35,892 bases of DNA. It comes from Sphingobacterium thalpophilum. Its GTDB lineage: Bacteria; Bacteroidota; Bacteroidia; Sphingobacteriales; Sphingobacteriaceae. The notes beneath the pieces were generated by a model. The model did no database searches. It had not been told where the DNA came from and saw only the letters and a list, made by a program, of their open reading frames with translations. Position 1 is the first letter of the stretch, and the number at the start of each line of letters is the position of its first letter. Positions 3,530-26,006 of the stretch are shown here, piece by piece. The position numbers were made by a program, and so were the translations under genes. The stretch is from assembly GCA_945878525.1 (NCBI GenBank), contig CAMCTU010000013.1:1-35892 (forward strand). Direction: 5' to 3'.

Positions 3530-4381
3530 TCAAACTAAATATTTAAGTTCCCCTTGTTTTTCAGTAGGATTCATCATGTAGGTAACCAAAGTACCATCAT
3601 TCAATAACTCTACCACTCTAAAGCCTCTGTAAGGCGTTCCCCAACTTCCTCCAACATGGGAATCAAATAAGAAAGGGATATTTTTAGCCATGACCACACC
3701 ATCCTGATCATGTAAATGACCATGAAATCCTGCTCTGATATTTGGATATTTATGGATTAATTCAAAAAATTTAGGAGCATAAATCGCTTGTTCAGTCCAT
3801 TCTTCTGGTGGAATGTGCAGAATCAGAAACACATTCTCTTTGCTTTTGTATTGTTCAAGCATCTGTTTTAACCATTGCAGATCTGGTGAAACATAAGTAC
3901 CCTGTTCATTAGAGGTATCTGCAAGTATAAACGCCGAACCTTTAGATTCAAAACTATGATTCAATGGCATTTTCCATACCTCATTCCATAATTCATCAGT
4001 CACCATATCATGATTTCCCCGAACAACATAACAAGGTACCTGCAGGTTATCAGTCCTCTTTTTAACCAACGGTAAGAAGTTCTTTTCGTCATGAATAATA
4101 TCACCATTAAGCACACAAAAATCAATACGATTACTCTTATTAAATAAATTAATCTGATTAATCACTTTATCAGTCATCTCATCGAATGCCGTGTTGGGCT
4201 GCCCATAATGAAAGTCGGAGGCAAGCACAAATCTCAGTTTAACTTTGGCCTTTAAGTCATAAACTTCCTCTGCAGAAAGATCGGTAATTTTACCAGTTAG
4301 CAATAAAGCAGAGGCAAATGAAATCTGCTGTATAAACCTCCTGCGAGTCTGTCTGCTTATATTTTTTTCCATATCCGCCAT
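3530..4381 (-). CDS. Tat-exported calcineurin-like metallophosphoesterase, copy 1
   Basis: Predicted periplasmic two-metal phosphoesterase of unknown substrate, 283 residues. The N-terminus carries a twin-arginine signal (TRRRFIQQ followed by a hydrophobic run, SFASALLLTG). The metallophosphatase motifs appear in order: DFHYG (D-x-H), NGDII, GNHD, LHIP and GFHGHLHD (GHxH). A C-terminal block (FDSHVGGSWGTPYRGFRVVEL) is very strongly kept between the two copies. It is the last gene of the minus-strand PSC1/PSD1 block and about 88 percent identical, by my hand count, to the next gene at 4558-5400. The ATG three codons in (4372) matches the start of the paralogue and is an equally good start. The function is inferred from motifs only. 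Confidence 0.88.
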   Translation of the reverse strand: MADMEKNISRQTRRRFIQQISFASALLLTGKITDLSAEEVYDLKAKVKLRFVLASDFHYGQPNTAFDEMTDKVINQINLFNKSNRIDFCVLNGDIIHDEKNFLPLVKKRTDNLQVPCYVVRGNHDMVTDELWNEVWKMPLNHSFESKGSAFILADTSNEQGTYVSPDLQWLKQMLEQYKSKENVFLILHIPPEEWTEQAIYAPKFFELIHKYPNIRAGFHGHLHDQDGVVMAKNIPFLFDSHVGGSWGTPYRGFRVVELLNDGTLVTYMMNPTEKQGELKYLV

Positions 4382-4557: not shown

Positions 4558-5400
4558 TTATGCCATGTATTTAAGCTCAGTTAGTTTTTCTGTTGGGTTC
4601 ATCATATAGGTAACCAAAGTACCATCATTCAATAACTCCACCACTCTAAAGCCTCTGTAAGGCGTTCCCCAACTTCCTCCAACATGGGAATCAAATAAGA
4701 AAGGGATATTTCTTGCCATGAACACACCATCCTGATCATGGACATGACCATGAAACCCTGCTCTGACATTTGGATATTTATGAATTAATTCAAAAAATTC
4801 AGGGGTATCTATTGCATGTTCAGTCCATTTAGCCTGCGGAATATGCAAAATAAGAAATACATTCTTCTTGCTTTTGTATTTTTCAAGCATTTCTTTTAAC
4901 CATTGCAAATCAGGTGAAACATAAGTACCCTGAATATTAGAGGTGTCTGCAAGTATAAATGCTGAACCTTTAGCCTCAAAACTATGATTCAATGGCATTT
5001 TCCAGACCTCATTCCATAATTCATCAGTCACCATGTCATGATTTCCCCGAACCACATAATAAGGAACCTGCAGGTTATCAGTTTTTTTCTTGACCAGAGG
5101 TAAGAGGTTCTCTTCGTTATGAATAATGTCACCATTTAGCACACAAAAATCAATTTGATTGCTCTTATTGAATAAATTAATTTGATCAATCACTTTATCA
5201 GTCATCTCGTCGAAAGCTGTGTTGGGCTGCCCATAATGAAAGTCGGAAGCAAGTACGAATCTCAGTTTAACTTTTGCTTTTAAACCATAAACTTCCTCTG
5301 CAGAAAGTCCGGTGATTCTACCAGTTAACAATAAAGCAGAAGCAAAGGAAATCTGCTTTATGAATCTCCGGCGGGTATCCCCGCTACTATTTTTTTCCAT
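4558..5400 (-). CDS. Tat-exported calcineurin-like metallophosphoesterase, copy 2
   Basis: Tandem paralogue of the gene at 3530-4381, 280 residues, with the same twin-arginine leader (TRRRFIKQ) and every metal-binding motif (DFHYG, NGDII, GNHD, LHIP, GFHGHVHD). The 34 or so differences cluster in the leader and in the middle (for example PQAKWTEHAIDTPEF against PPEEWTEQAIYAPKF). The final 50 residues are almost unchanged, which suggests recent gene conversion or strong constraint. It lies 93 bases downstream of the DUF2231-PSC1-LRR gene in the same direction. The 158 bases to copy 1 hold no gene. The two proteins may have diverged in substrate; which one is ancestral cannot be said. Confidence 0.88.
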   Translation of the reverse strand: MEKNSSGDTRRRFIKQISFASALLLTGRITGLSAEEVYGLKAKVKLRFVLASDFHYGQPNTAFDEMTDKVIDQINLFNKSNQIDFCVLNGDIIHNEENLLPLVKKKTDNLQVPYYVVRGNHDMVTDELWNEVWKMPLNHSFEAKGSAFILADTSNIQGTYVSPDLQWLKEMLEKYKSKKNVFLILHIPQAKWTEHAIDTPEFFELIHKYPNVRAGFHGHVHDQDGVFMARNIPFLFDSHVGGSWGTPYRGFRVVELLNDGTLVTYMMNPTEKLTELKYMA

Positions 5401-5493: not shown

Positions 5494-6921
5494 CTATAAC
5501 TTAACTCTCGCAGATTTTAACTCCACCGTATCACTTTCAAGATATTTTAGTTTATATCCTCCAGTATCAATGACCGCTTTTGGAAAAATTTTATTGAGCT
5601 GACTGAATTCTTTACCAGAAATCGCTGTTTGATAAAGAAAAATTTGCCTGAGCTCTTTCAAGGGTTTTAACTGCATTAGCCCGTCCGCTGTTACTGATGT
5701 TCCAACAAGATTCAAATATGTTAGGTTTGGCAAACTTGTTAGCATTGCAATACCACTATCATTAACCGCAGTTCTTTCTATTGAAAGACGAGAAAGTGAG
5801 GATAATTTCAGAAGGAATTTAAGCTTATCATTATTCAGATTAGTATCACCAATTTTTAACCAAATTAGCTGTTTGCTTAATGACTGCAATAATTGCAGAT
5901 CATTATCAGTGATTGTATCCAAAGCAACAAAATTGACAGAAAGGTAATTACTGTTATGAGCAACGGGTATTACGGCAACTCCGCGGGCGAGTAGCTCCTG
6001 AACAACTTTTGTATCTGCCTGCTCTACTGCTTTTTCAGGAATATCAGATATCAATTCTTTTTCAAGCTTTTCCTCAGACTGTAATGATAAAAGAACCGGT
6101 TTGATCTTTTCGGTTTGGACAAGATCGGCCACTTTCTTATCAAAATCAGCCCCGCTGCTAACCCACCAATGAATCAGATCCAGCTCGGTTTTTGTAAGTT
6201 GCGGTTGTTCGATAGGTGGCATATGATCATCACTTTCCTTTGACAATAAGATTCGTTTGATCAATTCACTTTCATCAGTATTTCCGGCAATGATTGCTTT
6301 GCCCCCCTTACCTCCTTTTAAAATAAAATCGGGCATATCCAATCTAAGCTTTCCCTTCTGCTTATTTATACCATGACATTTATAACATTTTGAGGTGAGA
6401 ATTGGCTTAATGACATCCTGATAGGCCAGTGCCTGCTGAACATTGGGAATTGGCTTTCTTTTTTCTTCAATTTGATCTGTTTCCCCTTTAGTAAATGCAC
6501 GGGTCAGGTAATCAGAGCCATGCGTTATTGAACCACCCAAATGCCCGGTGATTACAATCAACAATACTATTAGAATAAAAATCCAAGTAATTTGTCTATC
6601 CTTCCTGTTTAAATACCATGCAATAACTGAAACTATCGCAAGGGCAATTCCTGACCATTGATGATTAAAAATAAGATTTTCATCATAATCACCAGAACCT
6701 GAAAGCAGATATCCGCTAATACAGGAGGCTATTGCACTTAGCATACCCAGAAATAAAGAAACATCAACAGCTGTACTCAGCGCCTGATATTTTTCCTTTC
6801 GGGACAATAATTTAAACAATGCTGCAAGCAGCAATATCCCGATTGGAAGATGTACAAAAAGAGGGTGAAAACTCCCGACCAAGTCAGTAAGATTAAACAA
6901 TAATATAGCTAATGTGCTCAT
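5494..6921 (-). CDS. DUF2231 membrane domain / PSC1 cytochrome c / leucine-rich repeat fusion protein
   Basis: Inner-membrane protein of 475 residues combining three modules. Residues 1-135 hold four hydrophobic segments of the DUF2231 type (LFVHLPIGILLLAALF, then near 52-73, 88-105 and 112-130). Residues about 165-257 form a planctomycete-type cytochrome c domain (PSC1), with one heme site at C179-C182-H183 (CYKCHG) and the typical HMPP and IHWWVSSGA elements. Residues about 345-450 form four leucine-rich repeats of about 24 residues (LIWLKIGDT, LSRLSIERT, LTYLNLVGT, LRQIFLYQT). It could pass electrons from exported partners to the membrane chain; that is inference. It follows the TIM-barrel gene after 15 bases, so co-transcription is likely. 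I know no characterised member. Confidence 0.86.
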   Translation of the reverse strand: MSTLAILLFNLTDLVGSFHPLFVHLPIGILLLAALFKLLSRKEKYQALSTAVDVSLFLGMLSAIASCISGYLLSGSGDYDENLIFNHQWSGIALAIVSVIAWYLNRKDRQITWIFILIVLLIVITGHLGGSITHGSDYLTRAFTKGETDQIEEKRKPIPNVQQALAYQDVIKPILTSKCYKCHGINKQKGKLRLDMPDFILKGGKGGKAIIAGNTDESELIKRILLSKESDDHMPPIEQPQLTKTELDLIHWWVSSGADFDKKVADLVQTEKIKPVLLSLQSEEKLEKELISDIPEKAVEQADTKVVQELLARGVAVIPVAHNSNYLSVNFVALDTITDNDLQLLQSLSKQLIWLKIGDTNLNNDKLKFLLKLSSLSRLSIERTAVNDSGIAMLTSLPNLTYLNLVGTSVTADGLMQLKPLKELRQIFLYQTAISGKEFSQLNKIFPKAVIDTGGYKLKYLESDTVELKSARVKL

Positions 6922-6936
6922 TCAGGCAAGATGAAA

Positions 6937-7872
6937 TCAAGAATATCGTTTTCTAAGCAAATGCATCATGTGCACATTAACAGCCCATTGATCAGACAAA
7001 GCCTGTTTGGTATATGGATAAGTAGGCATATAGTCAGGTGGACCAAATTCCGTTAAAAAAGTAACAGGCTCACCCTTCATTCTTTTCCTTTCCACTACTT
7101 TATCCCACCACTCAAAATGCTGCTTTACGGTTAATTCCCATTCAGGTGCACGGGGATCATTAACTTGAGGGCCTTCAGGATGGCCGATTCTGGCATGAAT
7201 ATGTTCAGTGCGTGTCAATGCCAGATCAACAGATTCTTTCTGGTCAGCCAGTAAGCTCTCATGCACATTGCACCAATGTGAAATATCTAAAGTCAGCTTC
7301 AGATCAGGATACTTCTCAAGGAAATTTCTGGTAACATGAGCAGCAAACAACATTCGGCCACGATGTGTTTCATGGCAAATTAAAAGTCCGGTTTCCTTTG
7401 CCAATGCCTGAGTATGCTCAATGAATTTCTTATTATCATCGAAACTAAAATAGTCCCTTCCAGAGTGATTGTTAATGTACAATGGTCTCTGAATATTTTG
7501 TTTCGCTGCCGCATCGATCATTTTTTTGTAGAAGTCAAGATGTGTAAGGGGGTCGGACTGAGATCCCCCGCAGAGGAAGCCTATTTCAAGATCATGCTTC
7601 TTCAGAGCAGCAAATAGTTCATCCTGGACCTTTTTATTATCTGTTGGCCACCACAATTCTATTCCGTCATACCCTTCCTTTTTGACCTTTGCACAAAAAG
7701 AATCTATCGTACCCTGATAACCCCACATGGTTGCCAGAATCTTTAGTTCATAATTTTTATTAAAAGTTGAAGTAGTCATTTCGGGTAAGGCAAGGGATTC
7801 TAGTGAGGATAGTAATAATCCTGCTGAACCAACAGCAGATGTTTTGATGAACTTTCTTCGGTCTTGTTTCAT
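6937..7872 (-). CDS. Tat-exported sugar phosphate isomerase/epimerase-like TIM-barrel protein
   Basis: Predicted exported member of the xylose-isomerase-like TIM-barrel (AP endonuclease family 2) group, 311 residues. The leader has a twin-arginine motif (DRRKFIKTSAVGSAGLLL). Barrel features include DGIELWWPTD, the metal-ligand-like CHETHRGRM and TLDISHWCNVHE, HIHARIGHPEG and FLTEFGPPDY. Acid and histidine residues at these strand ends are where the family binds a divalent metal. It sits between the DUF1501 gene (20 bases upstream) and the PSC1-LRR gene (15 bases downstream), so the three probably share one mRNA. Action on a sugar or sugar acid in the periplasm is likely; the substrate is unknown. 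Confidence 0.87.
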   Translation of the reverse strand: MKQDRRKFIKTSAVGSAGLLLSSLESLALPEMTTSTFNKNYELKILATMWGYQGTIDSFCAKVKKEGYDGIELWWPTDNKKVQDELFAALKKHDLEIGFLCGGSQSDPLTHLDFYKKMIDAAAKQNIQRPLYINNHSGRDYFSFDDNKKFIEHTQALAKETGLLICHETHRGRMLFAAHVTRNFLEKYPDLKLTLDISHWCNVHESLLADQKESVDLALTRTEHIHARIGHPEGPQVNDPRAPEWELTVKQHFEWWDKVVERKRMKGEPVTFLTEFGPPDYMPTYPYTKQALSDQWAVNVHMMHLLRKRYS

Positions 7873-7892
7873 ATAATTACCTCAAATTCAAG

Positions 7893-9398
7893 TTAAGCTA
7901 TAATATCGGAAATCACTTTTCCACCAACATCTGTCAAGCGGAATGGTCTGCCTTGTGATTCATAAGTGAACTTTTCATGATCAAAGCCCAATTGATTAAG
8001 TATAGTTGCCTGGATATCAAATGCTTCTGTTTTGCCATTCACAATATCATATCCAATTTCGTCTGTTTCTCCATATGTGGTACCACCTTTGATACCTCCA
8101 CCTGCCATCCACATATTGAATGCTCCCGCATGATGATCTCTACCCTTAAAAGGCATATCTTTTCCTTCTCTATTCTCCTGCATCGGGGTTCTTCCAAATT
8201 CAGCACCCCAAACTATCAGGGTTTCATCAAGTAAACCTCTTTGCTTTAGGTCAAGAATCAATGCGGTAATGGGTTTATCTACATTTCGGCATTTATTGAC
8301 CAGTCCAATATCAACAGATCCACTGGCTGAATTTCCATGCGTATCCCAACCCCAATCAAATAACTGAACAAAACGAACACCTTTTTCAACCAGTTTTCTG
8401 GCCAGTAATACATTATTAGCAAAACTTGTTTTACCTGGTTCTGTACCATACATCTCATGTATATATGCTGGTTCATCATTTATATTCATGACTTCGGGCA
8501 CTGAAATCTGCATTTTATAGGCCATTTCATATTGGGCGATGCGCGACAAAATTTCGGGATCTTTATACTCTTCGTATTGCTCCTGATTTATTTTGTTAAT
8601 GGCATCAATGGATGCTTTACGAAGATCTCTGTCCATACCTGCCGGATCTTTAATAAACAAGACCGGATCACCCTCCCCCCTGCATTGAACACCCTGGTAA
8701 ACACTTGGAAGAAAACCACTTCCCCAAACACTTTTCCCGGCATCCGGATTATTACCGCCGGAAGTTAAAACAACAAAGCCGGGCAAATTCTTATTTTCTG
8801 ATCCCATTCCATAAGTTACCCAGGCGCCAACACTAGGCCTTCCAAGTCGTGCTGAACCTGTATGCATGAGTAATTGCGCAGGTGCATGGTTAAACTGGTC
8901 GGTTGTGACAGCATTTAACATGGCAATCTCATCTGCAACAGTAGCAAGGTGGGGTAAATTATCCGAAAGCCATAAGCCACTATTGCCGTGCTGTTTAAAA
9001 TTCGCCTGCGGACCAAGCATTTTAGGTACTCCTCTTATAAATGCAAACTTTTTACCTTCGAGCAAAGACTGTGGACAATCCTGACCATCAAGTTTTGCCA
9101 ATTCTGGCTTATAGCTGAACATCTCGAGTTGAGAAGGTGCCCCGGCCATATGTAAATAAATGACTGATTTAGCTTTTCCAGGAAACATTGGAGGCCTTGG
9201 CGCAAGCGGATTGGAAGCATCTAACATTGCATTTGGGGCAGAAGATCCACCAAAACCACAGCTTCCAAGCAATGAGCCCAAAGCAAGTGCACCAAAGCCC
9301 ATAGCTCCTTCCTTCAAAAAATGACGACGGGTATGTAATTGCAAAGCTGCATGTTCGGCCTCCATTCTTAACTTTTGTACCTGAGCATCTCTCTTCAT
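7893..9398 (-). CDS. DUF1501 family exported protein
   Basis: Member of DUF1501, an alkaline-phosphatase/sulfatase-like superfamily, 501 residues. The N-terminus is a long Tat-type leader (RR at 24-25, TRRHFLKEGAMGFGALALG) ending in a lipobox-like LLGSC with Cys47, so it may be a lipoprotein. Family landmarks are FDWGWDTHGN, LIVWGAEFGRTPMQ, GRDHHAGAFNMWMAGGG and GGTTYGETDEIG; the Asp and His residues are the likely metal ligands. It lies 30 bases after the PSD1 gene, the classic PSD1-DUF1501 pair known from Planctomycetes, Verrucomicrobia and Bacteroidota. Hydrolysis of a phospho- or sulfo-ester is inferred from the fold; the real reaction has not, to my knowledge, been established. Confidence 0.92.
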   Translation of the reverse strand: MKRDAQVQKLRMEAEHAALQLHTRRHFLKEGAMGFGALALGSLLGSCGFGGSSAPNAMLDASNPLAPRPPMFPGKAKSVIYLHMAGAPSQLEMFSYKPELAKLDGQDCPQSLLEGKKFAFIRGVPKMLGPQANFKQHGNSGLWLSDNLPHLATVADEIAMLNAVTTDQFNHAPAQLLMHTGSARLGRPSVGAWVTYGMGSENKNLPGFVVLTSGGNNPDAGKSVWGSGFLPSVYQGVQCRGEGDPVLFIKDPAGMDRDLRKASIDAINKINQEQYEEYKDPEILSRIAQYEMAYKMQISVPEVMNINDEPAYIHEMYGTEPGKTSFANNVLLARKLVEKGVRFVQLFDWGWDTHGNSASGSVDIGLVNKCRNVDKPITALILDLKQRGLLDETLIVWGAEFGRTPMQENREGKDMPFKGRDHHAGAFNMWMAGGGIKGGTTYGETDEIGYDIVNGKTEAFDIQATILNQLGFDHEKFTYESQGRPFRLTDVGGKVISDIIA

Positions 9399-9428
9399 AT
9401 AAATTATTTTACAATTGCTAAAACCTAT

Positions 9429-12161
9429 TTAATTTTTGTTGAGCCATTCATCCATATTTAACATGGCACCGGCAACAATTACCAATGATGCTGTTTCAGG
9501 ATCTGGAGTTCTATCTTTTGAACCCATTAATTCAATAACGGCTGTTTTATCTTTTTTATATTTCTTTAAGGCTTCAAAATACAGCTCAGATAATGCCTTT
9601 AATTTTTTCTCCGAAATCGGTTTAAACATCATGGCTTCATAAGCCTTACTGATTTGGGTTTTTGTTTCCTTCCCTCCTAACTCTTTCATACGCAGTGCCA
9701 AACTCCTGGAAATTACCAATGTTGTAGAGTCATTCAGTGAGGTTAAAGCTTGCAAGGGAGTATTCGTCCTGATTCTACGGGGCAGGCATGATTCTCTGGC
9801 ACTTCCGTCAAAGGTCATCATGGAAGGATAAGGAGCTGTACGCTTGAGATAGGTATAAACTGCTCTTCTGTACTGATCCTCCCCCTGACTCATTATCCAT
9901 TTCTCTCCGTTATATGGCGACCTCCAGATACCTTCAGGTTGAAATGGCATTACACTAGGTCCATACATTTTATTACTTAACACCTGACTTACTTCCAAAC
10001 CCTGATCTCTTAGCTGCTCTGCTGAAAGTCTGATTCTTGAAGCTCTTGAATAAAACTTATTATTAGGATCAATCTCTAATTTTTCTTCTGTAACTGCAGA
10101 ACTCTGTCTGTATGCCGCAGACATGACAATCTCCTTTAGAAGACTTTTCATGCTCCAATTATGCTCATTCATGAATTTCCATGACAAATGATCCAGTAAT
10201 TCCTTATGAGTTGGCGCAATTCCTTGTGAGCCAAGGTCCTCAAGTGTTTCAGCAATCCCAAATCCAAATAACTGCTCCCATAATCTATTCACCATAGTCC
10301 TGGCGACAAGCGGATTTTTCTTATCAGTTAACCATAAGGCCATTCCTAATCTATTCTTAGGAACATTTGCAGGCATTGGATTCATGATGTCCGGAACACC
10401 AGGTTCAACCTTGTTTCCTTTAACCATCCAATTTCCACGTTCAAAAACTTGGGTAGTTCTGTATTGTTCGTGGTTATTTTCGATCATGATAGGTGTTTCA
10501 TCTACCCTGGCTTGCATCAGCTGGTTGAAATTACTTAGAGCAAGTTCATAACCTGGTTTTCCTTTGCCGGGAAAAGGCACATCAAACTGAAACCACTCAA
10601 ACAGTACACCGGTATCATCGGGGTTTTTAATTGCCGGACTGAAATATTTAAAAAACAGGTTATGTTTTCCGGTTTCGGCGGGTATTGGCAGCATTACAAT
10701 TTTCCATTCACCTTTTGTGTTCGCAAGGGGAACAGTCGTTAATAATTGGCCATTTAAAGCATCCAGATAAATAGACCATTTGCCCCCATCAAAATTGGTT
10801 TTATAACGAAACATGAGTTGTGTCTTATTTTCTAAAACAACATCCTTCAATCGACAGGTACCGTTATTTCGCAGTCCGGCAAACCAGCTGCTAATCAAAG
10901 CAGCATTCACAAACTGATCACATTGCAGTGAATTAATTGTTGGCTGCCATGTTTTAAGAAAGTTAAAGTATTTTTTCGCCTGACTTTCTGTTGTGTTACT
11001 TTTTAACCATTCAATCAGCTTTACCAGCTTAATGCTATCCTGAGAATTATATTGGCGTAATAATGGATAATCTGCATTAGTATCTTCATCCCTCGTATTG
11101 TTGAAAAAAGCCAGAAACTTATAATATTCATCACTCTTAAACGGATCATAAGGATGACTATGACATTGTACACAGTTGAAAGAAGTTCCCATTGTAGCAC
11201 TCCATGTTGTATTTACCCGATCCATCACTGCCGAGGTTCTGAATTCTTCATTATCAGTTCCACCTTCATCATTAGTCATGGTGTTCCTGTGAAATGCTGT
11301 TGCTATATATTTTGCATCATCAGGATTTGGCAAAAGATCACCTGCAAGTTGCTCAATAAGAAAATCATTGTATGGCTTATCTGAATTATATGATTTGATT
11401 AACCAATCACGGTATTTCCAAATAATTCTACCTCGGTCGGCCTCATATCCTCTTGTATCTGCATAGCGAGCAAGATCAAGCCACAGGCTTGTCCATCTTT
11501 CACCATAACGAGGAGAAGATAATAAATCGTCTACAAGATTCTCGTAAGCTTTATTGGAATTGTCCTGAAGGTATTTCTTTGAAGTTGCAGACGATGCTGG
11601 GAGACCGATAAGATCAAGACTAAGTCTTCGCAATAGAGTTGCCTTATCAGCTTCTGGAGAGGGATCCAATTTCTGTTCCTCCAGTTTTTCATAAATAAAT
11701 CTATCAATATCATTTTTAACCCATTTATTATTAATATTCGGAATATCCTGTTTTTTAACGGATACGTAAGCCCAATGCTCTCCCCATTTTGCACCTTCTT
11801 TAATCCATTGCCTGAAAACTTCAATCTCTTCTTTAGAAAGTGCTTCATGCTTATAAGGCATTCTTTCTTCAGGATCCTTATTAGTAATTCTTTTAATCAA
11901 TTCACTGCCCTCAGGATCACCCGGAATGATTGCAGGTTTTCCTGAGTCAGTGAGTCCTAATGCCTCTTCCTGAAAGAGGAGACTGAATCCGGCTTCCTGC
12001 TTAACTCCACCATGGCAAGCGATACATTTCTTATTGATAATTGGCTTGACATGAGCATTGTAATCCACTTTCTGATTAGAAAGTGACAACTTATATAATG
12101 CACCTACCACCATCAGTAGTGCAATTAACACAAGGATTTTTTTCGAATTGAACTGTACCAT
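9429..12161 (-). CDS. PSC1/PSD1 (DUF1549-DUF1553) cytochrome c protein with CBM6-like insert
   Basis: Large exported di-heme protein of 910 residues. A single hydrophobic anchor (KKILVLIALLMVVGALY) is followed by PSC1 with heme site C46-C49-H50 (CIACHG), then DUF1549 (about 140-345) with a second heme site C330-C333-H334 (CVQCHSHPYDP). About residues 444-529 look like a CBM6-type jelly roll (WSIYLDALNG, GEWKIVMLPI, GKHNLFFKYF, LFEWFQF), and DUF1553 fills the rest (NPLVARTMVNRLWEQLFG, TPLQALTSLND). A longer frame would start at a TTG at 12194; the ATG at 12161 directly precedes the anchor and is preferred. It heads the minus-strand operon. Redox chemistry on a carbohydrate is the natural reading, but no biochemistry is known to me. 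Confidence 0.92.
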   Translation of the reverse strand: MVQFNSKKILVLIALLMVVGALYKLSLSNQKVDYNAHVKPIINKKCIACHGGVKQEAGFSLLFQEEALGLTDSGKPAIIPGDPEGSELIKRITNKDPEERMPYKHEALSKEEIEVFRQWIKEGAKWGEHWAYVSVKKQDIPNINNKWVKNDIDRFIYEKLEEQKLDPSPEADKATLLRRLSLDLIGLPASSATSKKYLQDNSNKAYENLVDDLLSSPRYGERWTSLWLDLARYADTRGYEADRGRIIWKYRDWLIKSYNSDKPYNDFLIEQLAGDLLPNPDDAKYIATAFHRNTMTNDEGGTDNEEFRTSAVMDRVNTTWSATMGTSFNCVQCHSHPYDPFKSDEYYKFLAFFNNTRDEDTNADYPLLRQYNSQDSIKLVKLIEWLKSNTTESQAKKYFNFLKTWQPTINSLQCDQFVNAALISSWFAGLRNNGTCRLKDVVLENKTQLMFRYKTNFDGGKWSIYLDALNGQLLTTVPLANTKGEWKIVMLPIPAETGKHNLFFKYFSPAIKNPDDTGVLFEWFQFDVPFPGKGKPGYELALSNFNQLMQARVDETPIMIENNHEQYRTTQVFERGNWMVKGNKVEPGVPDIMNPMPANVPKNRLGMALWLTDKKNPLVARTMVNRLWEQLFGFGIAETLEDLGSQGIAPTHKELLDHLSWKFMNEHNWSMKSLLKEIVMSAAYRQSSAVTEEKLEIDPNNKFYSRASRIRLSAEQLRDQGLEVSQVLSNKMYGPSVMPFQPEGIWRSPYNGEKWIMSQGEDQYRRAVYTYLKRTAPYPSMMTFDGSARESCLPRRIRTNTPLQALTSLNDSTTLVISRSLALRMKELGGKETKTQISKAYEAMMFKPISEKKLKALSELYFEALKKYKKDKTAVIELMGSKDRTPDPETASLVIVAGAMLNMDEWLNKN

Positions 12162-12194
12162 TGGATGTCTTTGTTTTAAAGATATAAATTCCAA

Positions 12195-18809: not shown

Positions 18810-19586
18810 TCAGCCTTGAGAACGCTTATGCAAATTGACTATGCTTTGACTGAGTTTAATGTAGAGTTCTGATAAATCGGGATTATGTTTCAGAAGTTCA
18901 AGATGAGCCTGAATGGTAGTTTGATCCTCCCTGATGGCAGGTCCGGTTTGAACAGAAACCGGACTATTGATTTCAATTTTGTTGAGCGTTTCTTCAATCA
19001 GGGGTTTCAAAAGCTCATAATCTAAGCCCTTTTCTTCTAATAACTCTTGAGCAAGCCCAAAAAGATGATTTGTAAAATTACAGGCAAAAACTGCTCCAAT
19101 ATGGAGTGTCTTACGTTGCTCTGAATTTAATTCAATTACCTTTTCTGACAAACGATCTGCAATTGCCCGAATAATTGCCAGAACTTCAGGAACATTTGCT
19201 TCAATAATAATTGGTATATTTCGAAAGTCAATAGATTTGATCTTTGAAAAAGTCTGCAGTGGATAAAAAACTCCGATTTTTGTGGATGCACCTTCAAGAG
19301 CTGAAAGTCCGGTTGAACCCGAAGTATGTAAAAGAAGCTGATCGCTGAGCTTCAATTCAAGGGCAATCTTCCTAATAGCTTCATCGTTTACAGCAATAAT
19401 AAACAAGTCTGCTGTACGATCAAGGTCAATCATACTGTCGATAGCCTCTGCAGCCAAAGTATCTGCCAAAACACTAGCCTTTGTAATATCACGGCTCCAG
19501 ACTTGGGAAATAGTTTGTCCGGCCATTTTAAATCCACGGCCTAGATGCGTAGCTATGTTACCGCTGCCTAATATGACAATATTCAT
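18810..19586 (-). CDS. Rossmann-fold DUF2520 protein
   Basis: Protein of 258 residues with an N-terminal NAD(P)-binding fold (IVILGSGNIATHLGRGFK, then LLLHTSGSTGLSALEG) and a C-terminal helical DUF2520 domain (TLHIGAVFACNFTNHLFGLAQELLEEKG). It resembles ketopantoate reductase and F420-dependent oxidoreductases, but the substrate is unknown. Its ATG shares one base with the ccmF stop (TGATG), so translation is probably coupled. In many Bacteroidota I recall it near kdsC and maf, as here. Confidence 0.87.
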   Translation of the reverse strand: MNIVILGSGNIATHLGRGFKMAGQTISQVWSRDITKASVLADTLAAEAIDSMIDLDRTADLFIIAVNDEAIRKIALELKLSDQLLLHTSGSTGLSALEGASTKIGVFYPLQTFSKIKSIDFRNIPIIIEANVPEVLAIIRAIADRLSEKVIELNSEQRKTLHIGAVFACNFTNHLFGLAQELLEEKGLDYELLKPLIEETLNKIEINSPVSVQTGPAIREDQTTIQAHLELLKHNPDLSELYIKLSQSIVNLHKRSQG

Positions 19587-22051
19587 CAGGCTTGCTTAAT
19601 TTCCTTATTTCTTCTGAAAATGGATAGTATAAATCCAATCACCATAATGATTGTGCCACCCCAAAATAAATTTATGTATGGAAATTCTATTGCCTTTAGA
19701 ACTACCCAATCTTTCTCAGCTTTAGGTTTCTGATAAACCATCAGTTCAAGCTTGTCTTTATCGGGATAAACATTTGAAAAGCGCAATTTTAAACCCTTTT
19801 CCTCTACCGTTTTTCCAAAATCAAATTTGGAGCCATCCTTTAATAAGTAAATTGGCTCTGAAGGAATCACCTGACCGTCAGAAATTACATCCAATTGCAA
19901 GCCTATAGCGATATCACGTTCACCGACAGGAATATTCTGAATTTTCGCATCACGGTTAATACCCTTAACTAAAATATAACCTTCTCTGAAACGAACCGTG
20001 TCGCCTACATTCACTTCATAGGTAACGGGCTTCTCATATTTCTCGTCCTCAGAGTGTCCTTCATGTTCTTCATGGTCTTCTTCTTTAAGCGGAACGCTGC
20101 TTACATGGGTGTAAACATCATGAAAAAGATAGTGACGGGTATCCGGAGAAGCAATAATTTGCCTCATCTTTGCATTTTGTTGTGCATTAGGATAGAGTGT
20201 AAAGTTCTCTTTAATAGTACCACCAGCCTCATCAATAACCTTATAATTAATTCTGTAATAAGTATTTACACCTTTTGTGGAGTCTCCCAAATAAGTAACT
20301 GTGTAGCGATCCATCTTGGTAGGCTCATCCTTATAAAGAATAATATTTTCGCGAGGATTGTTACTCTTTGCGAACTCATCTCCAAAACCAATGCCGGTAT
20401 TATTGATCGAAATAATTTTATTTGTTGCAGCGGCAACCAGTGCTCCAACAAGCAATAAAGCGAAACCGATGTGTGCTACTGCAGAACCTGCAAGTCTCCA
20501 CTTTCCTTTAAATGCTTCACCTAGAATTCTAGCATTGGCCATTATCGAAAACACGGAAGCAAACGTAAGAATGATGTACATCACGTTGGTATAAATATTC
20601 ATTACATATACTGCTGCTGCTGTAATGAATACCGAAACAAGAAGTGATATTGAAATACTCACAAAAAACTTCTTTGGATCAGTCTTTTTATATTTTAGGT
20701 ATTGCGAAAATGCTGAAATGAACGCTATTACAACAGCAAATGGAACCTGCCATTTGTTGTAATGCGCTATAACATCAGGCGGTGGAGCGATCTCTGTTCC
20801 AAAAATGGCATTGAATACCGGTACAGAGGTGGTAGCAAGTATTTGAACGCAGGCGATTGACAAAACCAAAGCTCCTATAAACAGCCAGAACTCACGCGAA
20901 TACGTTTCTTCATCCTTTTTGGTTATTGGAAGCTCTTTCCAGCGAATAACAAGAAAGAAAATAGCGATAAAAAGGAATGCAACTACATATAGAACTAAAT
21001 GCCAGAACATACCTAAATCGGTAAAAGCATGGACTGAGGTTTCACCCAGAATTCCACTTCTGGTAAGAAATGATGCATAAAGTACTAGTACAAAACTAAT
21101 CAGAACAAGGAAGGTAGCTGTAAAATAAGAATGACCGGAATTTCTATATGCAATCAGTACGTGAACCGCAGCAATCAAAGTCATCCATGGTATAATGGAA
21201 GCGTTCTCTACCGGATCCCATGCCCAGAAGCCTCCAAAATTCAGTGCTTCATAGGCCCAGAATGAACCCATTATAATACCTGTACCCAGAATCATTACCG
21301 CAAACAGGGTCCATGGCAAAGCAGGAGTAATCCATTCAGCATATTTTTTCTCCCAAAGACCGCCAATGGCATAGGCAAAAGGTACAATCATGGAAGCAAA
21401 ACCAAGAAATAAAGTGGGTGGATGTATAACCATCCAGTAGTTTTGAAGCAATGGATTTAAACCATTCCCATCTGTAACCATATTCAGATAATCACCTCGA
21501 GCGAAGATTGGCCCCGGAACCGCATCCCTTAAAAGAATAAATGGTGAACTTCCAATTCTTAGTCCGAAAACCTCAACCCCAACCAGCATGGATGCAATAA
21601 ATGCCTGAGAAAGCATGATTGTAGTCATGACTGAATTTTCCCAGCGCTTGCCCTTTGAAAGAATAATTGTTCCTAAAAAAGCCTGCCAGAACATCCAAAG
21701 CCAGAAACTTCCTTCCTGACCTTCCCAAAAAGATGAAATAATATAGTAAACCGGTAAAATCTTCGATGAGTGAGCCCATGCATAATGGTATTCAAACAAA
21801 TGATTATAGATGATGTAATAAAGGCAAGATCCAATTCCGATTACGGCCACTGTATTTAAACGAAATGCAATTCTTGCGATACGTTTCCAGCCATCAGAAC
21901 TTGCCTGAACAGACTGGTCTTTTGAGAGTGCAGTGCTGGTCGCGAAATAATAGGCAATTGTTGACAGAAGAGCTGTACAAAACGAAAGTATGATAAAGAA
22001 CTGTCCTAACTTCCCGGGAAGAAGGTTTTCGCCAATGTATTGTATTTCCAT
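19586..22051 (-). CDS. ccmF: Cytochrome c heme lyase subunit CcmF
   Basis: Large membrane protein of 821 residues that takes heme from holo-CcmE and ligates it to apocytochrome. The heme-handling tryptophan-rich WWD segment is at about 273-290 (GGFWAWDPVENASIIPWM). Conserved His residues are found in YNHLFEYHYAWAHSS, WMVIHPPTLFLG and near FTDLGMFWHLVLY. About 14 membrane helices are followed by a soluble loop (about 560-790) containing an acidic/His stretch (EEDHEEHEGHSEDEK) and a last helix. The ccmE gene ends 6 bases upstream. No ccmH or ccmG is present here. Confidence 0.93.
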   Translation of the reverse strand: MEIQYIGENLLPGKLGQFFIILSFCTALLSTIAYYFATSTALSKDQSVQASSDGWKRIARIAFRLNTVAVIGIGSCLYYIIYNHLFEYHYAWAHSSKILPVYYIISSFWEGQEGSFWLWMFWQAFLGTIILSKGKRWENSVMTTIMLSQAFIASMLVGVEVFGLRIGSSPFILLRDAVPGPIFARGDYLNMVTDGNGLNPLLQNYWMVIHPPTLFLGFASMIVPFAYAIGGLWEKKYAEWITPALPWTLFAVMILGTGIIMGSFWAYEALNFGGFWAWDPVENASIIPWMTLIAAVHVLIAYRNSGHSYFTATFLVLISFVLVLYASFLTRSGILGETSVHAFTDLGMFWHLVLYVVAFLFIAIFFLVIRWKELPITKKDEETYSREFWLFIGALVLSIACVQILATTSVPVFNAIFGTEIAPPPDVIAHYNKWQVPFAVVIAFISAFSQYLKYKKTDPKKFFVSISISLLVSVFITAAAVYVMNIYTNVMYIILTFASVFSIMANARILGEAFKGKWRLAGSAVAHIGFALLLVGALVAAATNKIISINNTGIGFGDEFAKSNNPRENIILYKDEPTKMDRYTVTYLGDSTKGVNTYYRINYKVIDEAGGTIKENFTLYPNAQQNAKMRQIIASPDTRHYLFHDVYTHVSSVPLKEEDHEEHEGHSEDEKYEKPVTYEVNVGDTVRFREGYILVKGINRDAKIQNIPVGERDIAIGLQLDVISDGQVIPSEPIYLLKDGSKFDFGKTVEEKGLKLRFSNVYPDKDKLELMVYQKPKAEKDWVVLKAIEFPYINLFWGGTIIMVIGFILSIFRRNKEIKQA

Positions 22052-22057
22052 TAAGAT

Positions 22058-22468
22058 CTAAATTTTTGCGGTGGTGGCAGTTACTTCTGTAACTTCTACC
22101 TCATCTGTGGTATATTTTGAAGGGCACTTCATTAAAATCTTTGAAGCATGAAATTCTTTGCCAATCATTTTTCCTGTTAGCACAATCTGTTCTGAACGTT
22201 CAAAATCCTGTGGTTTTGAGCCATTAAAGACCACTTTGCACTCTTTCCCTTTATTATCCTTCATGTAGAATGCAAAGTAATTGGCATCCTGTTGTGGCTT
22301 ATAAAAAAGCTCCTTTTCCTTATTCAGTTGTCCAACAACATGTAACTCAGAACTACTCTCTATGGCGTCTGTAAATGAGCCATAAGTGCTTGAATCGGCG
22401 TAGGTGCTAATAATTATACCAATTGCTAATGCAATGATAACTATACCGGCAATGGAACTCTTCTTCAT
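22058..22468 (-). CDS. ccmE: Cytochrome c maturation heme chaperone CcmE, CxxxY variant
   Basis: Periplasmic heme chaperone of 136 residues with an N-terminal membrane anchor (IAGIVIIALAIGIIIS) and the OB-fold barrel (ELHVVGQLNK, FYMKDNKGKECKVVF, QIVLTGKMIGKEF). Classical CcmE binds heme covalently through His in HxxxY. The aligned position here reads LMKCPSKYT, with Cys115 and Tyr119, so it is the CxxxY type described for the reduced Ccm system of some Desulfovibrio and archaea. It is followed by ccmF at 6 bases. A promoter candidate and a 7-1-7 palindrome lie upstream. Confidence 0.92.
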   Translation of the reverse strand: MKKSSIAGIVIIALAIGIIISTYADSSTYGSFTDAIESSSELHVVGQLNKEKELFYKPQQDANYFAFYMKDNKGKECKVVFNGSKPQDFERSEQIVLTGKMIGKEFHASKILMKCPSKYTTDEVEVTEVTATTAKI

Positions 22469-22623: not shown

Positions 22624-24060
22624 TCATGGCCAGATACCCATATTCATATAGGAAATGGCAACTTTATCAATGGCACCGACAAATGCTGCGGTTCTCAATC
22701 CGTCAATTTTAGAATTGGCCATTTGTATATCACGTATCTCATGGTATGACCGGATCATCGTATCTTCAAGTCCGGAATTAACTAATTCAAGCTCTGTGGC
22801 TCCTTTAACGATTATACTCTTTTGAGCTGAATCAAGTGAAATGCCAGTAATCTTTTCAACCATGTTAACGAGGTTCTGGTTGGCGTTTTCTTCGTACCGC
22901 TTATCCATGCGGCCAAATGCCACGTGCGAAAGGTTTTTAAGCCATTCGAAATAAGAAACTGTAACACCACCGGCATTACAATACATGTCAGGAATTAAAA
23001 TGCAACCTCTTTTAATCAGGAAATCAGCTGCATCGGGGGTAGTAGGACCGTTGGCAGCTTCAGCAATAATTTTTGCTTTAATATTGGCAACATTGGCCAT
23101 GGTGATTTGATTTTCTAAAGCAGCAGGAACCAAAACATCGCAATCCTGTTCAAGGCCTTCAGCAGAATTATTGAATTCTTTTGTTGATCCGGCAAAACCT
23201 AGAATCGAACCTGTGGATTTGCGATGGTTGAATACCTCATCCAGATTTAGTCCGTCAGGATTGTAGATTGCACCCTCATACTCACAGATACCAACTACTG
23301 TAGCACCAAATTCAATAAGATATTTAATGGTATGGTAGCCTACATTACCTAATCCCTGCACGATCACCCGCTTACCCGACAAACCAGTACTCAGTCCGAG
23401 TTTATTCATATCCTCTGTGATATCTACACACTCCCGTATGGCAATGGCAACCCCCCGGCCAGTGGCTTCTCTCCGACCGGCAATTCCATGCAAGGCTAAT
23501 GGTTTTCCGGTAACGCAACCTAATGCATCCAATTGACCAGGATTCATGGTTTGATAAGTATCTGCAATCCAGCTCATTTCACGTTCCCCTGAGCCATAAT
23601 CAGGAGCAGGAACATCAATACCCGGACCAATAAAATTCTTTTTTATTAATTCAACAGTATATCGACGGGTAATAGTTTCAAGTTCAGCAATAGAATAATC
23701 TTTCGTTCTAATCTTGATTCCCCCTTTTGCACCACCGAAAGGAACATTAACAATCGCACATTTATAGGTCATGAGTGCAGCAAGCGCCATCACCTCATCC
23801 TCATTTACCATTTCACTATAACGAATACCGCCTTTTGTGGGTGATTTATGATGGGAATGTTCTACTCTCCAAGCATCAATTACCTCAAAACCATTCTCAC
23901 GACGAATTGGAAAACGGAAGCGGTAAACACTATTGCAAGACCTGATCTGGTCAAGCAATCCTTCCGGGTGAGAAGTAAATTTTGCTGCATGATCAAAAAA
24001 CTGGCAAACGTCACCAAAAAACGAAGTTTCTGAGTGCGCTGCGTCTATAGACTTAGCCAT
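22624..24060 (-). CDS. Glutamate dehydrogenase (Glu/Leu/Phe/Val family)
   Basis: Cytosolic enzyme interconverting glutamate and 2-oxoglutarate plus ammonia, 478 residues from the chosen start. The catalytic region is VPFGGAKGGIKI, with the active-site Lys, followed by DVPAPDYGSGEREMSWI. The nucleotide-binding fold shows VIVQGLGNVGYHT. Substrate-pocket residues in KSPTKGGIRYS are typical of GDH rather than leucine dehydrogenase. An upstream GTG at 24099 would add 13 residues; the ATG at 24060 is preferred. It interrupts the ccm cluster, between the ccmD-like gene and ccmE, with spacers of 143 and 155 bases, so it is probably its own unit. Confidence 0.93.
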   Translation of the reverse strand: MAKSIDAAHSETSFFGDVCQFFDHAAKFTSHPEGLLDQIRSCNSVYRFRFPIRRENGFEVIDAWRVEHSHHKSPTKGGIRYSEMVNEDEVMALAALMTYKCAIVNVPFGGAKGGIKIRTKDYSIAELETITRRYTVELIKKNFIGPGIDVPAPDYGSGEREMSWIADTYQTMNPGQLDALGCVTGKPLALHGIAGRREATGRGVAIAIRECVDITEDMNKLGLSTGLSGKRVIVQGLGNVGYHTIKYLIEFGATVVGICEYEGAIYNPDGLNLDEVFNHRKSTGSILGFAGSTKEFNNSAEGLEQDCDVLVPAALENQITMANVANIKAKIIAEAANGPTTPDAADFLIKRGCILIPDMYCNAGGVTVSYFEWLKNLSHVAFGRMDKRYEENANQNLVNMVEKITGISLDSAQKSIIVKGATELELVNSGLEDTMIRSYHEIRDIQMANSKIDGLRTAAFVGAIDKVAISYMNMGIWP

Positions 24061-24203
24061 AAGAAAAGATTTTAATTTGAATAATTGGTTATATGCCACA
24101 AAGTTGATGGAAATAAACCGTTACTAAAAATGTAAATCACTTAGTATACAAAATAAATTTCATCAACTGAGCAGAAACTCAATTTAAAGAACTTTAAAAG
24201 AGA

Positions 24204-24422
24204 TTATTTAGTATTTTGTTTTTCAATTTTTTTTAATCGGCTATCAATTGAAAAGAGATAAATAGCCAGTCCGATGAATACAACTGAAATAACTGATACA
24301 ACAACATAAATCTTTCCGGAGCTTCTCAGGGCATCAGCCATCTCCACGCCAATAGAATTTTGTGCCAGAAGATTTAATGTAAATGAGAGCATAAAGCTTA
24401 AAATAAGGATAAGTTTTTTCAT
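24204..24422 (-). CDS. CcmD-like small membrane protein
   Basis: Protein of 72 residues with a signal-peptide-like N-terminus (MKKLILILSFMLSFTLNLLA), a single later membrane helix (IYVVVSVISVVFIGLAIYLF) and a short basic tail (IDSRLKKIEKQ). CcmD proteins, which hold CcmC and heme-loaded CcmE with CcmAB, have one helix and a basic C-terminus like this; the Bacteroidota form adds the leader. Position downstream of ccmB and ccmC on the same strand supports the assignment. Sequence identity with proteobacterial CcmD is negligible, so topology and context carry the call. Confidence 0.75.
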   Translation of the reverse strand: MKKLILILSFMLSFTLNLLAQNSIGVEMADALRSSGKIYVVVSVISVVFIGLAIYLFSIDSRLKKIEKQNTK

Positions 24423-24652: not shown

Positions 24653-25318
24653 TCAATTAATCAAGTTCTGTCTGTTCTCCAACTTTCTTATCCTATACCT
24701 TATGATAGTAATCCATACACTGATAAGTATCCAACCCAACACAGCAGGATAAAACACCGGACGCAATTCGGGTGCCATATCTTTGGTATTAAACCCAGGG
24801 TTACCCCCATTGCCGGGATGGAGTGAATCGGTCATACGTGGCAATATAAATAGCAATACCACCATAATCGGAAATGCAAAAATATTATAGACTGCAGAAA
24901 TTTTTCCTCGTTTCTGTTCTTCCTCAAGAGAGTTTCTTAGCACGAGATAAGCCAGATAAACAAGCAAGGCTATTGCTGCACTATTTTGTTTAGGGTCATT
25001 ACTCCAGGCTTCACCCCAGGTATATTTAGCCCAGACAGCACCGGTAACCAGACCCAGAATACCGAAAATGATTCCAACATTGGCACTTTCAACAGCCATC
25101 AGATCATCATTTTCATTGGCTGAATTCAGATAGCGTATGCTGTAAATGAAGGAAACGGTTAAGATGACAATCATGGCAAACCACATGGGTACATGGAAAT
25201 GAATGTTCCGGATGGTTTCGTTTAAGATTGGCTTTGCAGGCACATGAAATAAAAACCCCGCAATAATTGAGTACAGCACAAGAACTGTGGCCAGGATTTT
25301 CCACCAGTTTTTATTCAT
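24653..25318 (-). CDS. ccmC: Heme-handling protein CcmC
   Basis: Inner-membrane protein of 221 residues that loads heme onto CcmE. Six helices are predicted. The two conserved His regions are NIHFHVPMWF and DSLHPGNGGNP. The tryptophan-rich loop reads KYTWGEAWSNDPKQNSA, a shortened form of the WGxxWxWDxR motif with the second W replaced by N and no Arg. ccmB lies 12 bases upstream, so the pair is an operon. The ATG at 25318 gives a natural basic N-terminus. Confidence 0.93.
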   Translation of the reverse strand: MNKNWWKILATVLVLYSIIAGFLFHVPAKPILNETIRNIHFHVPMWFAMIVILTVSFIYSIRYLNSANENDDLMAVESANVGIIFGILGLVTGAVWAKYTWGEAWSNDPKQNSAAIALLVYLAYLVLRNSLEEEQKRGKISAVYNIFAFPIMVVLLFILPRMTDSLHPGNGGNPGFNTKDMAPELRPVFYPAVLGWILISVWITIIRYRIRKLENRQNLIN

Positions 25319-25330
25319 AAGGTTCTTGAA

Positions 25331-25993
25331 TTAATCCTTCCAAAGGTAAGGAAATAACAATAAAGAAGTAGTGATCACGATGATATTTATGGCTATTAGA
25401 ACTCCTATTTCATCATAGGATACCGAGCGATCCAGACCGTCCATTGCGTTTTTAGACAACTTGATCAGGACTACCAAAAGGGGAATTATGACCGGAAAAC
25501 TTAAGATTGCCATTAGCCCTCCTGCATTATTTGCTTTGGAAGCAATTCCTGAGATCATCGTAAATACCGATGCGAAACTAATGCTACCCAGCAATACGGC
25601 AAAAAAATAGAATAGTGGATCACCAAGCAGATTTTTAAAAACCAGAGTATAAAAACCTAATGCAATTGCTGAGAGTAGCAGCATCAGAAAGATATTATAA
25701 ATGATCTTAGAAATAATGATTGCCTGGGCACTGGTGATTGTGTAATAATAGAGTTGCCTGCCTTTGCTTTCCTGTATAAAACTTTTTGTGATCGCATTGA
25801 CAGAAGCGAAAAGCATTATGATCCAAAAGAGGGCATTCCAGGTTGGCGGACTGGTGATCTCGCGAAAAGCCAGATAACATACAAAAACTGTTGACACTAC
25901 GTAAAGTAAAATGCCGTTCAAAGCATATTTTGAACGCCATTCCAACATGATTTCCTTACGGATCAGAAATTTAACCTGACTCAATAAATCCAT
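25331..25993 (-). CDS. ccmB: Heme exporter / release subunit CcmB
   Basis: Integral membrane partner of the CcmA ATPase, needed to release holo-CcmE from CcmC; 220 residues with six predicted helices. Family landmarks are LIRKEIMLEWRSKYALNGILLYV at the N-terminus (amphipathic, then first helix), FIQESKGRQLYYYTI and MAILSFPVIIPLLVVLIKLS. A GTG two codons upstream (25999) overlaps the last G of a TATATTTG promoter box, so the ATG at 25993 is chosen. No ccmA lies next to it. Confidence 0.92.
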   Translation of the reverse strand: MDLLSQVKFLIRKEIMLEWRSKYALNGILLYVVSTVFVCYLAFREITSPPTWNALFWIIMLFASVNAITKSFIQESKGRQLYYYTITSAQAIIISKIIYNIFLMLLLSAIALGFYTLVFKNLLGDPLFYFFAVLLGSISFASVFTMISGIASKANNAGGLMAILSFPVIIPLLVVLIKLSKNAMDGLDRSVSYDEIGVLIAINIIVITTSLLLFPYLWKD

Positions 25994-25998
25994 TTCCA

Positions 25999-26006
25999 CA
26001 AATATA
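25999..26006 (-). promoter_or_regulatory. Candidate -7 box for ccmB, nearly leaderless
   Basis: TATATTTG on the minus strand matches TAnnTTTG and ends five bases before the ATG at 25993. Transcription would start at or within a few bases of the start codon. Confidence 0.5.

What the first reader, a model, noticed from the sequence alone, without database searches (positions are those of the whole stretch)
22058..22468. CcmE has CxxxY instead of the heme-binding HxxxY
The aligned motif reads LMKCPSKYT. CxxxY CcmE is known from a natural Ccm variant lacking CcmH and CcmG (Desulfovibrio-type), and no ccmG or ccmH is seen here. A Bacteroidota version would bind heme through Cys rather than His.
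Basis: partly seen in the sequence, partly recalled or inferred. Interest (0 to 1): 0.6.

Follow-up and report, generated by a model that had tools for sequence, protein, structure and literature searches.

The report
Cysteine-type heme chaperone across Bacteroidota
This gene makes CcmE, the protein that ferries heme to cytochromes, in a form that holds heme with a cysteine instead of the textbook histidine; that form is a known variant, and every one of the 144 Bacteroidota genomes checked has it, so it is the normal state of the phylum and not an oddity of this genome.

Summary
The ORF at 22058-22468 (-) is a CcmE, and C115 of its CPSKY motif aligns with the heme-binding His130 of E. coli CcmE; Y119 aligns with the iron ligand Tyr134. 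It is the only CcmE in the genome. The genome has no detectable CcmH and no ResB (System II), but it has ccmB, ccmC, a ccmD-like gene, ccmF and many c-type cytochromes. This fits the published cysteine variant of Ccm, System I*, in which CPSKY is the commonest motif. It is not special to this genome: 144 of 144 sampled Bacteroidota CcmE read CPS[K/R]Y, none HxxxY, including the 30 weakest family matches. The System I* review I could read does not list Bacteroidota.

Beyond the finding, the partner CcmF (821 aa; E. coli 647) carries a second, cysteine-free copy of its periplasmic beta-cap domain. Its predicted fold matches the beta domains of Thermus CcmF and of System II CcsB. The three CcmF proteins compared from CcmH-bearing loci lack it. 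It is a candidate for the unexplained compensation for missing CcmH, but untested. No dedicated CcmA was recognised. Covalent heme attachment was not tested.

The parts
22058..22468 (-). ccmE, 136 aa, membrane-anchored OB-fold heme chaperone, Cys type
   Evidence: PF03100 E=7e-13; sole CcmE in the genome
22112..22126 (-). CPSKY motif; C115 is the predicted heme-binding residue, Y119 the predicted iron ligand
   Evidence: aligns with E. coli H130/Y134; CPS[K/R]Y in 144/144 Bacteroidota genomes
19586..22051 (-). ccmF, 821 aa, cytochrome c synthase subunit (WWD motif region and histidines H210, H297, H341, H527 present)
   Evidence: PF01578 and PF16327; model pLDDT 87, matches T. thermophilus CcmF 6zmq Z 36.9, 573/589 aligned; the four His invariant in 49 CcmF
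20096..20356 (-). first periplasmic beta-cap domain of CcmF (aa ~566-652), as in other CcmF
   Evidence: sequence alignment to 6zmq up to its residue 606; model
19721..20047 (-). extra second beta-cap domain of CcmF (aa ~669-777), no cysteine, absent from CcmF of E. coli, Psychrobacter and Metabacillus
   Evidence: alignment; domain model pLDDT 93; 6zmq cap Z 10.4, 96 aligned, rmsd 2.7; CcsBA 7s9y Z 8.2, 89 aligned, rmsd 3.4
24204..24422 (-). ccmD-like small membrane protein, 72 aa
   Evidence: size, predicted topology and conserved position between ccmC and ccmE; no Pfam test made
24653..25318 (-). ccmC, 221 aa; H42, H167, W96, W101, W105, D108 align with E. coli heme-handling H60, H184, W114, W119, W123, D126
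   Evidence: PF01578 E=5e-24, TIGR01191 E=6e-22
25331..25999 (-). ccmB, 222 aa
   Evidence: PF03379 E=6e-8, over cut-off

Best explanation
The gene encodes the heme chaperone of a System I* (Cys-type) cytochrome c maturation pathway, which is the standard and apparently only maturation route of this bacterium. CcmB/C/D present heme on the periplasmic side. CcmE takes it up covalently through C115, with Y119 as iron ligand, and hands it to CcmF, which attaches it to CXXCH motifs of apocytochromes without CcmH. Shown here: gene content, the residue register, phylum-wide conservation of CPS[K/R]Y, absence of CcmH and ResB by profile, and an extra beta-cap domain in CcmF. Inferred from D. desulfuricans and M. 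acetivorans work: covalent attachment at Cys and CcmH-independent function. Speculative: that the extra beta cap of CcmF takes over the substrate-holding part of CcmH's role, while thiol reduction comes from unlinked thioredoxin-like and DsbD-type proteins.
For: CcmE family match; C115/Y119 aligned with H130/Y134; single CcmE; 144/144 Bacteroidota CcmE with CPS[K/R]Y, weakest matches included; ccmB-C-D-(gdh)-E-F order conserved in Sphingobacteriaceae, and ccmB-C-D-E-F without the gdh gene in others; no CcmH; no ResB; CcmC and CcmF heme-handling residues intact; 27 cytochrome c domain matches in the genome and PSCyt1 domains in this window, so there are clients to mature; DsbD-type protein present. 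Published: C120 of the CXXXY motif in M. acetivorans CcmE is needed for heme attachment (PMC9084895); the Desulfovibrio Ccm operon without CcmH/CcmG made holocytochrome c in E. coli with heme bound covalently to the Cys-type CcmE; CPSKY in 25 of 36 cases (PMC3601427).
Against: No experiment on any Bacteroidota CcmE was found. No ccmA was recognised at the locus, and none of the genome's ATPases passes the TIGR01189 cut-off, so the release step for holo-CcmE lacks an assigned ATPase. CcmH absence rests on one Pfam profile.
Confidence: 0.87

Rival explanations
1. The cysteine is not a heme ligand: it forms a disulfide or serves thiol exchange on apocytochrome c, and heme is held noncovalently or through another residue.
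For: CcmG and CcmH are not at the locus, so a thiol on CcmE could take a redox role. A covalent Cys-heme bond would be a stable thioether, hard to break (remark in PMC3601427).
Against: The Cys sits exactly at the heme-binding position with the Tyr partner kept. The only other cysteine of this CcmE, C77, is not conserved in more distant Bacteroidota CcmE, so a conserved disulfide is not possible. The same motif binds heme covalently in Desulfovibrio and requires Cys in Methanosarcina.
Confidence: 0.07
2. CcmE here is a decayed or accessory paralog and a canonical His-type CcmE or another maturation system does the work.
For: Some relatives carry a second CcmE-like protein without any heme motif.
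Against: One CcmE only in a 99% complete genome, no ResB, motif invariant across the phylum; in the relatives read with a motif-less copy, the CPSKY copy is also present.
Confidence: 0.02
3. Ordinary Ccm in which a divergent CcmH was missed and the extra CcmF domain has nothing to do with CcmH.
For: PF03918 gives weak matches in 11 of 395 Bacteroidota genomes. One profile can miss a short divergent protein.
Against: Five of the weak-hit genomes were fetched; the hits inspected lie among small CPLC/CPIC proteins in metal-resistance surroundings, not at ccm loci. No small CXXC protein recurs next to ccmE/ccmF in the neighbourhoods listed.
Confidence: 0.15

Closest known systems
System I* (Cys-type Ccm) of Desulfovibrio desulfuricans and D. 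vulgaris (CcmE structure 2KCT)
   Same: CxxxY-type CcmE (CPSKY is the commonest form of the motif), CcmH absent, CcmB/C/D/F present
   Different: different phylum; order ccmB-C-D-(gdh)-E-F with no ccmA, ccmG, ccmH or ccmI attached; the D. desulfuricans CcmF was not available here to compare for the extra beta cap
Archaeal Ccm of Methanosarcina acetivorans (CcmABCEF1F2)
   Same: CXXXY CcmE, no CcmH/CcmI
   Different: archaeal set lacks CcmD and has a split CcmF; here a ccmD-like gene is present and CcmF is one chain
Canonical System I of E. coli (CcmABCDEFGH)
   Same: homologous CcmB, C, E, F with the same heme-handling histidines in CcmC and CcmF
   Different: His instead of Cys in CcmE; has CcmG and CcmH; CcmF is 647 aa with one beta cap
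System II CcsBA synthase
   Same: shared WWD core and a beta-cap domain of the same predicted fold as the extra CcmF domain (7s9y Z 8.2)
   Different: no CcmE-like chaperone in that system; no ResB gene in this genome

Membership tests
System I* (Cys-type Ccm) | cysteine at the heme-binding position of CcmE | tested here: met
   C115 aligned with E. coli H130; conserved in 144/144
System I* (Cys-type Ccm) | CcmH absent (original definition; later found in only about two thirds of Cys-CcmE bacteria, PMC3601427) | tested here: met
   no PF03918 match in the genome
System I* (Cys-type Ccm) | CcmB, CcmC and CcmF present with heme-handling residues | tested here: met
System I* (Cys-type Ccm) | CcmA ATPase partner of CcmB | tested here: inconclusive
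   37 ABC matches, none over the TIGR01189 cut-off, none beside ccmB; the ATPase may be unlinked and divergent
System I* (Cys-type Ccm) | heme bound covalently through the CcmE cysteine | not testable with these tools
   needs heme stain and mass spectrometry
Canonical System I | HxxxY CcmE | tested here: not met
   sole CcmE has CPSKY
Canonical System I | CcmH/CcmG synthase partners | tested here: not met
   CcmH absent; no ccmG at the locus, though thioredoxin-fold proteins occur elsewhere
System II (CcsBA/ResBC) | ResB/CcsB protein | tested here: not met
   no PF05140 match in the genome at E<=0.001

The most novel reading that the evidence does not exclude
Bacteroidota carry a CcmH-free cytochrome c synthase in which CcmF has duplicated its periplasmic beta cap (two copies here, three in some relatives). 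The second cap, which has no cysteine, takes over the apocytochrome-holding role of CcmH, bringing the synthase close to System II CcsBA in architecture while it is still fed by a Cys-type CcmE.
Probability: 0.3. Interest if true: 0.6.

Novelty: new member of a known kind. Interest (0 to 1): 0.4.

Why it matters
System I* has been described from deltaproteobacteria, some Firmicutes and Chloroflexi, and archaea. If it is the rule in Bacteroidota, it is a mainstream pathway and not a rarity, and genetically tractable members of the phylum become models for it. The extra CcmF domain gives a concrete, testable candidate for the question left open in the System I* literature: what, if anything, compensates for missing CcmH.

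Tried and rejected
Second HxxxY CcmE: none. System II backup: no ResB. CcmH: none; the weak phylum matches that I inspected are small CPLC/CPIC proteins among metal-resistance genes. CcmA: the best TIGR01189 matches in the genome read by eye like LolD-, LptB-, GldA- and FtsE-type ATPases, none over the cut-off; one relative (G298, L213 3760-4383) does have an ATPase overlapping ccmB, so the gene is unlinked or replaced in the window's family, not proven absent. Internal repeat of the two CcmF beta domains by sequence: weak only (hhalign P 0.005, probability 7%); it is supported by structure instead and by the third copy in 957-958 aa CcmF proteins (24% identity, E ~1e-7). My claim that the extra cap tracks loss of CcmH rests on few points outside Bacteroidota: E. 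coli, Psychrobacter and Metabacillus (CcmH present, cap absent) and Natronorubrum (no ccmH at the plasmid locus, CcmF 778 aa with extra residues in the same loop but not shown to be the same fold).

Full report
WHAT IS THERE. The ORF at 22058-22468 (-) encodes a 136-aa protein with an N-terminal membrane anchor and a CcmE domain (PF03100, E=7e-13). The motif LMKCPSKYT is present as described. Aligned with E. coli K-12 CcmE, the heme-binding His130 falls on C115 and the iron ligand Tyr134 on Y119; the profile search against solved structures gives the same register. The window lies in a Daejeonella-like Sphingobacteriaceae genome: the best named match is a Daejeonella sp. MAG with 96% identical CcmE. 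The genome is 99% complete in 242 contigs.

CONTEXT IN THE GENOME. Reading along the minus strand: ccmB (25999-25331), ccmC (25318-24653), a ccmD-like gene (24422-24204), a glutamate dehydrogenase gene (24099-22624), ccmE, ccmF (22051-19586), then a DUF2520 protein. CcmC keeps the heme-handling residues of E. coli (H42, H167, W96, W101, W105, D108). CcmF keeps four histidines (H210, H297, H341, H527) that are invariant in 49 aligned Bacteroidota CcmF; H210, H297 and H341 align with E. coli H173, H261 and H303, and H527 with the AHLG histidine near residue 491 of E. coli CcmF (residue 461 as printed in PMC8975832 is a Trp in the K-12 sequence). There is no second CcmE, no CcmH and no ResB in the genome. 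Cytochrome c domains are abundant (27 matches). A DsbD-type protein and several thioredoxin-fold proteins exist elsewhere and could supply thiols; none can be named CcmG from sequence.

IS IT UNUSUAL? No. CcmE occurs in 253 of 395 sampled Bacteroidota genomes. I read the motif in 144 of them: 111 from the listed matches (109 CPSKY, 2 CPSRY), then 33 more, including the 30 chosen as weakest family matches to avoid picking only typical sequences (all CPSKY). None has His. The 80 named loci are not counted, because that search was seeded with the motif itself. E. coli CcmE, run through the same home-made profile, was found and shows His, so the method could have shown a His. Cysteine is therefore the standard of the phylum as far as sampled.

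WHAT IS KNOWN. Cys-type CcmE defines System I*. The 2011 review (PMC3601427) reports CPSKY in 25 of 36 examples; names deltaproteobacteria, Chloroflexi and Firmicutes, but not Bacteroidota; notes that about one third still have CcmH; and says no compensating feature has been found in other Ccm proteins. The Desulfovibrio operon made holocytochrome c in E. coli without CcmH and CcmG, with heme covalently on the Cys-type CcmE. In M. acetivorans C120 of the CXXXY motif is needed for heme attachment (PMC9084895). The original reports (Allen 2006, Goddard 2010, Aramini 2012) could not be read (the latter two were looked up and are not held), so an earlier mention of Bacteroidota cannot be excluded.

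BEYOND THE FINDING: CcmF. The window's CcmF has 821 aa against 647 in E. coli. Bacteroidota CcmF range from about 760 to 958 aa. The AlphaFold model (pLDDT 87) matches T. thermophilus CcmF 6zmq along its whole length (Z 36.9, 573 of 589 residues), leaving an extra segment, about aa 645-777, before the last helix. Folded alone, aa 566-793 give a confident model (pLDDT 93) of two beta domains. The second, extra one superposes on the beta domain of 6zmq (Z 10.4, 96 residues, rmsd 2.7) and on that of CcsBA 7s9y (Z 8.2, 89 residues, rmsd 3.4), both above the remaining rows apart from one S-layer domain at 7.4 that is tied with 7s9y. Pfam ResB matches CcmF in several members (13 of 49 at E<=0.01, best 2e-10 in L221 at 703-760). 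In two CcmF of 957-958 aa a third copy is visible by sequence (E ~1e-7). The literature already notes that CcmF and CcsB share a beta-stranded cap over the active site (PMC10663686); I found no mention of a duplicated cap. The extra domain has no cysteine, so it cannot replace CcmH's thiol chemistry, at most its substrate-holding role. CcmF proteins encoded beside a CcmH (E. coli 647 aa, Psychrobacter 682, Metabacillus 660) lack the domain, Metabacillus even though its CcmE is CPSKY. This suggests that the cap goes with CcmH loss and not with the cysteine, but the comparison is small and the phylum is one lineage.

OPEN POINT: CcmA. No ATPase sits beside ccmB in the window or in most relatives read, and no ATPase of the genome passes the ccmA cut-off (only 13 of 395 genomes have one that does). 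One distant relative has an ATPase overlapping ccmB (L213). Either CcmA is unlinked and divergent here, or another ATPase serves.

VERDICT. Covalent heme at C115 remains inferred.

Noticed in passing
L221 5112-5528 (-); L217 6410-6760 (+); L017 438-797 (-); L029 1078-1452 (-); L279 and L280 (genomes G062, G294): A second CcmE-like OB-fold protein that stops just before the heme motif, in several cases lying between ccmE and ccmF; a possible accessory of the pathway.
   Followed up: partly
L137 7540-7923 (+), Mucilaginibacter lacusdianchii: A motif-less CcmE-like protein with a lipoprotein-type signal directly upstream of the CPSKY ccmE.
   Followed up: no
L136 8001-8822 (+): Two tandem ccmE genes in a Mucilaginibacter MAG, both with CPSKY.
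   Followed up: no
L196, L208 (also CcmF of similar length in L205, L206, L211): CcmF of 940-958 aa with a third copy of the beta-cap domain (shown by sequence in L196 and L208).
   Followed up: partly
L237 1258-1713 (-), Natronorubrum bangense plasmid: An archaeal CcmE reading HEGEH at the heme motif, although archaeal CcmE is described as almost always CXXXY.
   Followed up: no
window 22624-24099 (-): A glutamate dehydrogenase gene is inserted between the ccmD-like gene and ccmE; the insertion is shared by many Sphingobacteriaceae and absent in other Bacteroidota.
   Followed up: partly
window 3530-4381 and 4558-5400 (-): Two tandem, closely similar calcineurin-like phosphoesterase genes with twin-arginine-like leaders.
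   Followed up: no
window 5494-12194 (-): A cluster with planctomycete-type cytochrome c domains (PSCyt1/PSCyt2/PSD1); these are c-type cytochrome clients of the Ccm system in the same window.
   Followed up: no
L230, L231 (PF03918 weak hits): Small periplasmic His/Met-rich proteins with a CPLC/CPIC motif score weakly as CcmH in some Bacteroidota; they look like metal-resistance proteins.
   Followed up: partly
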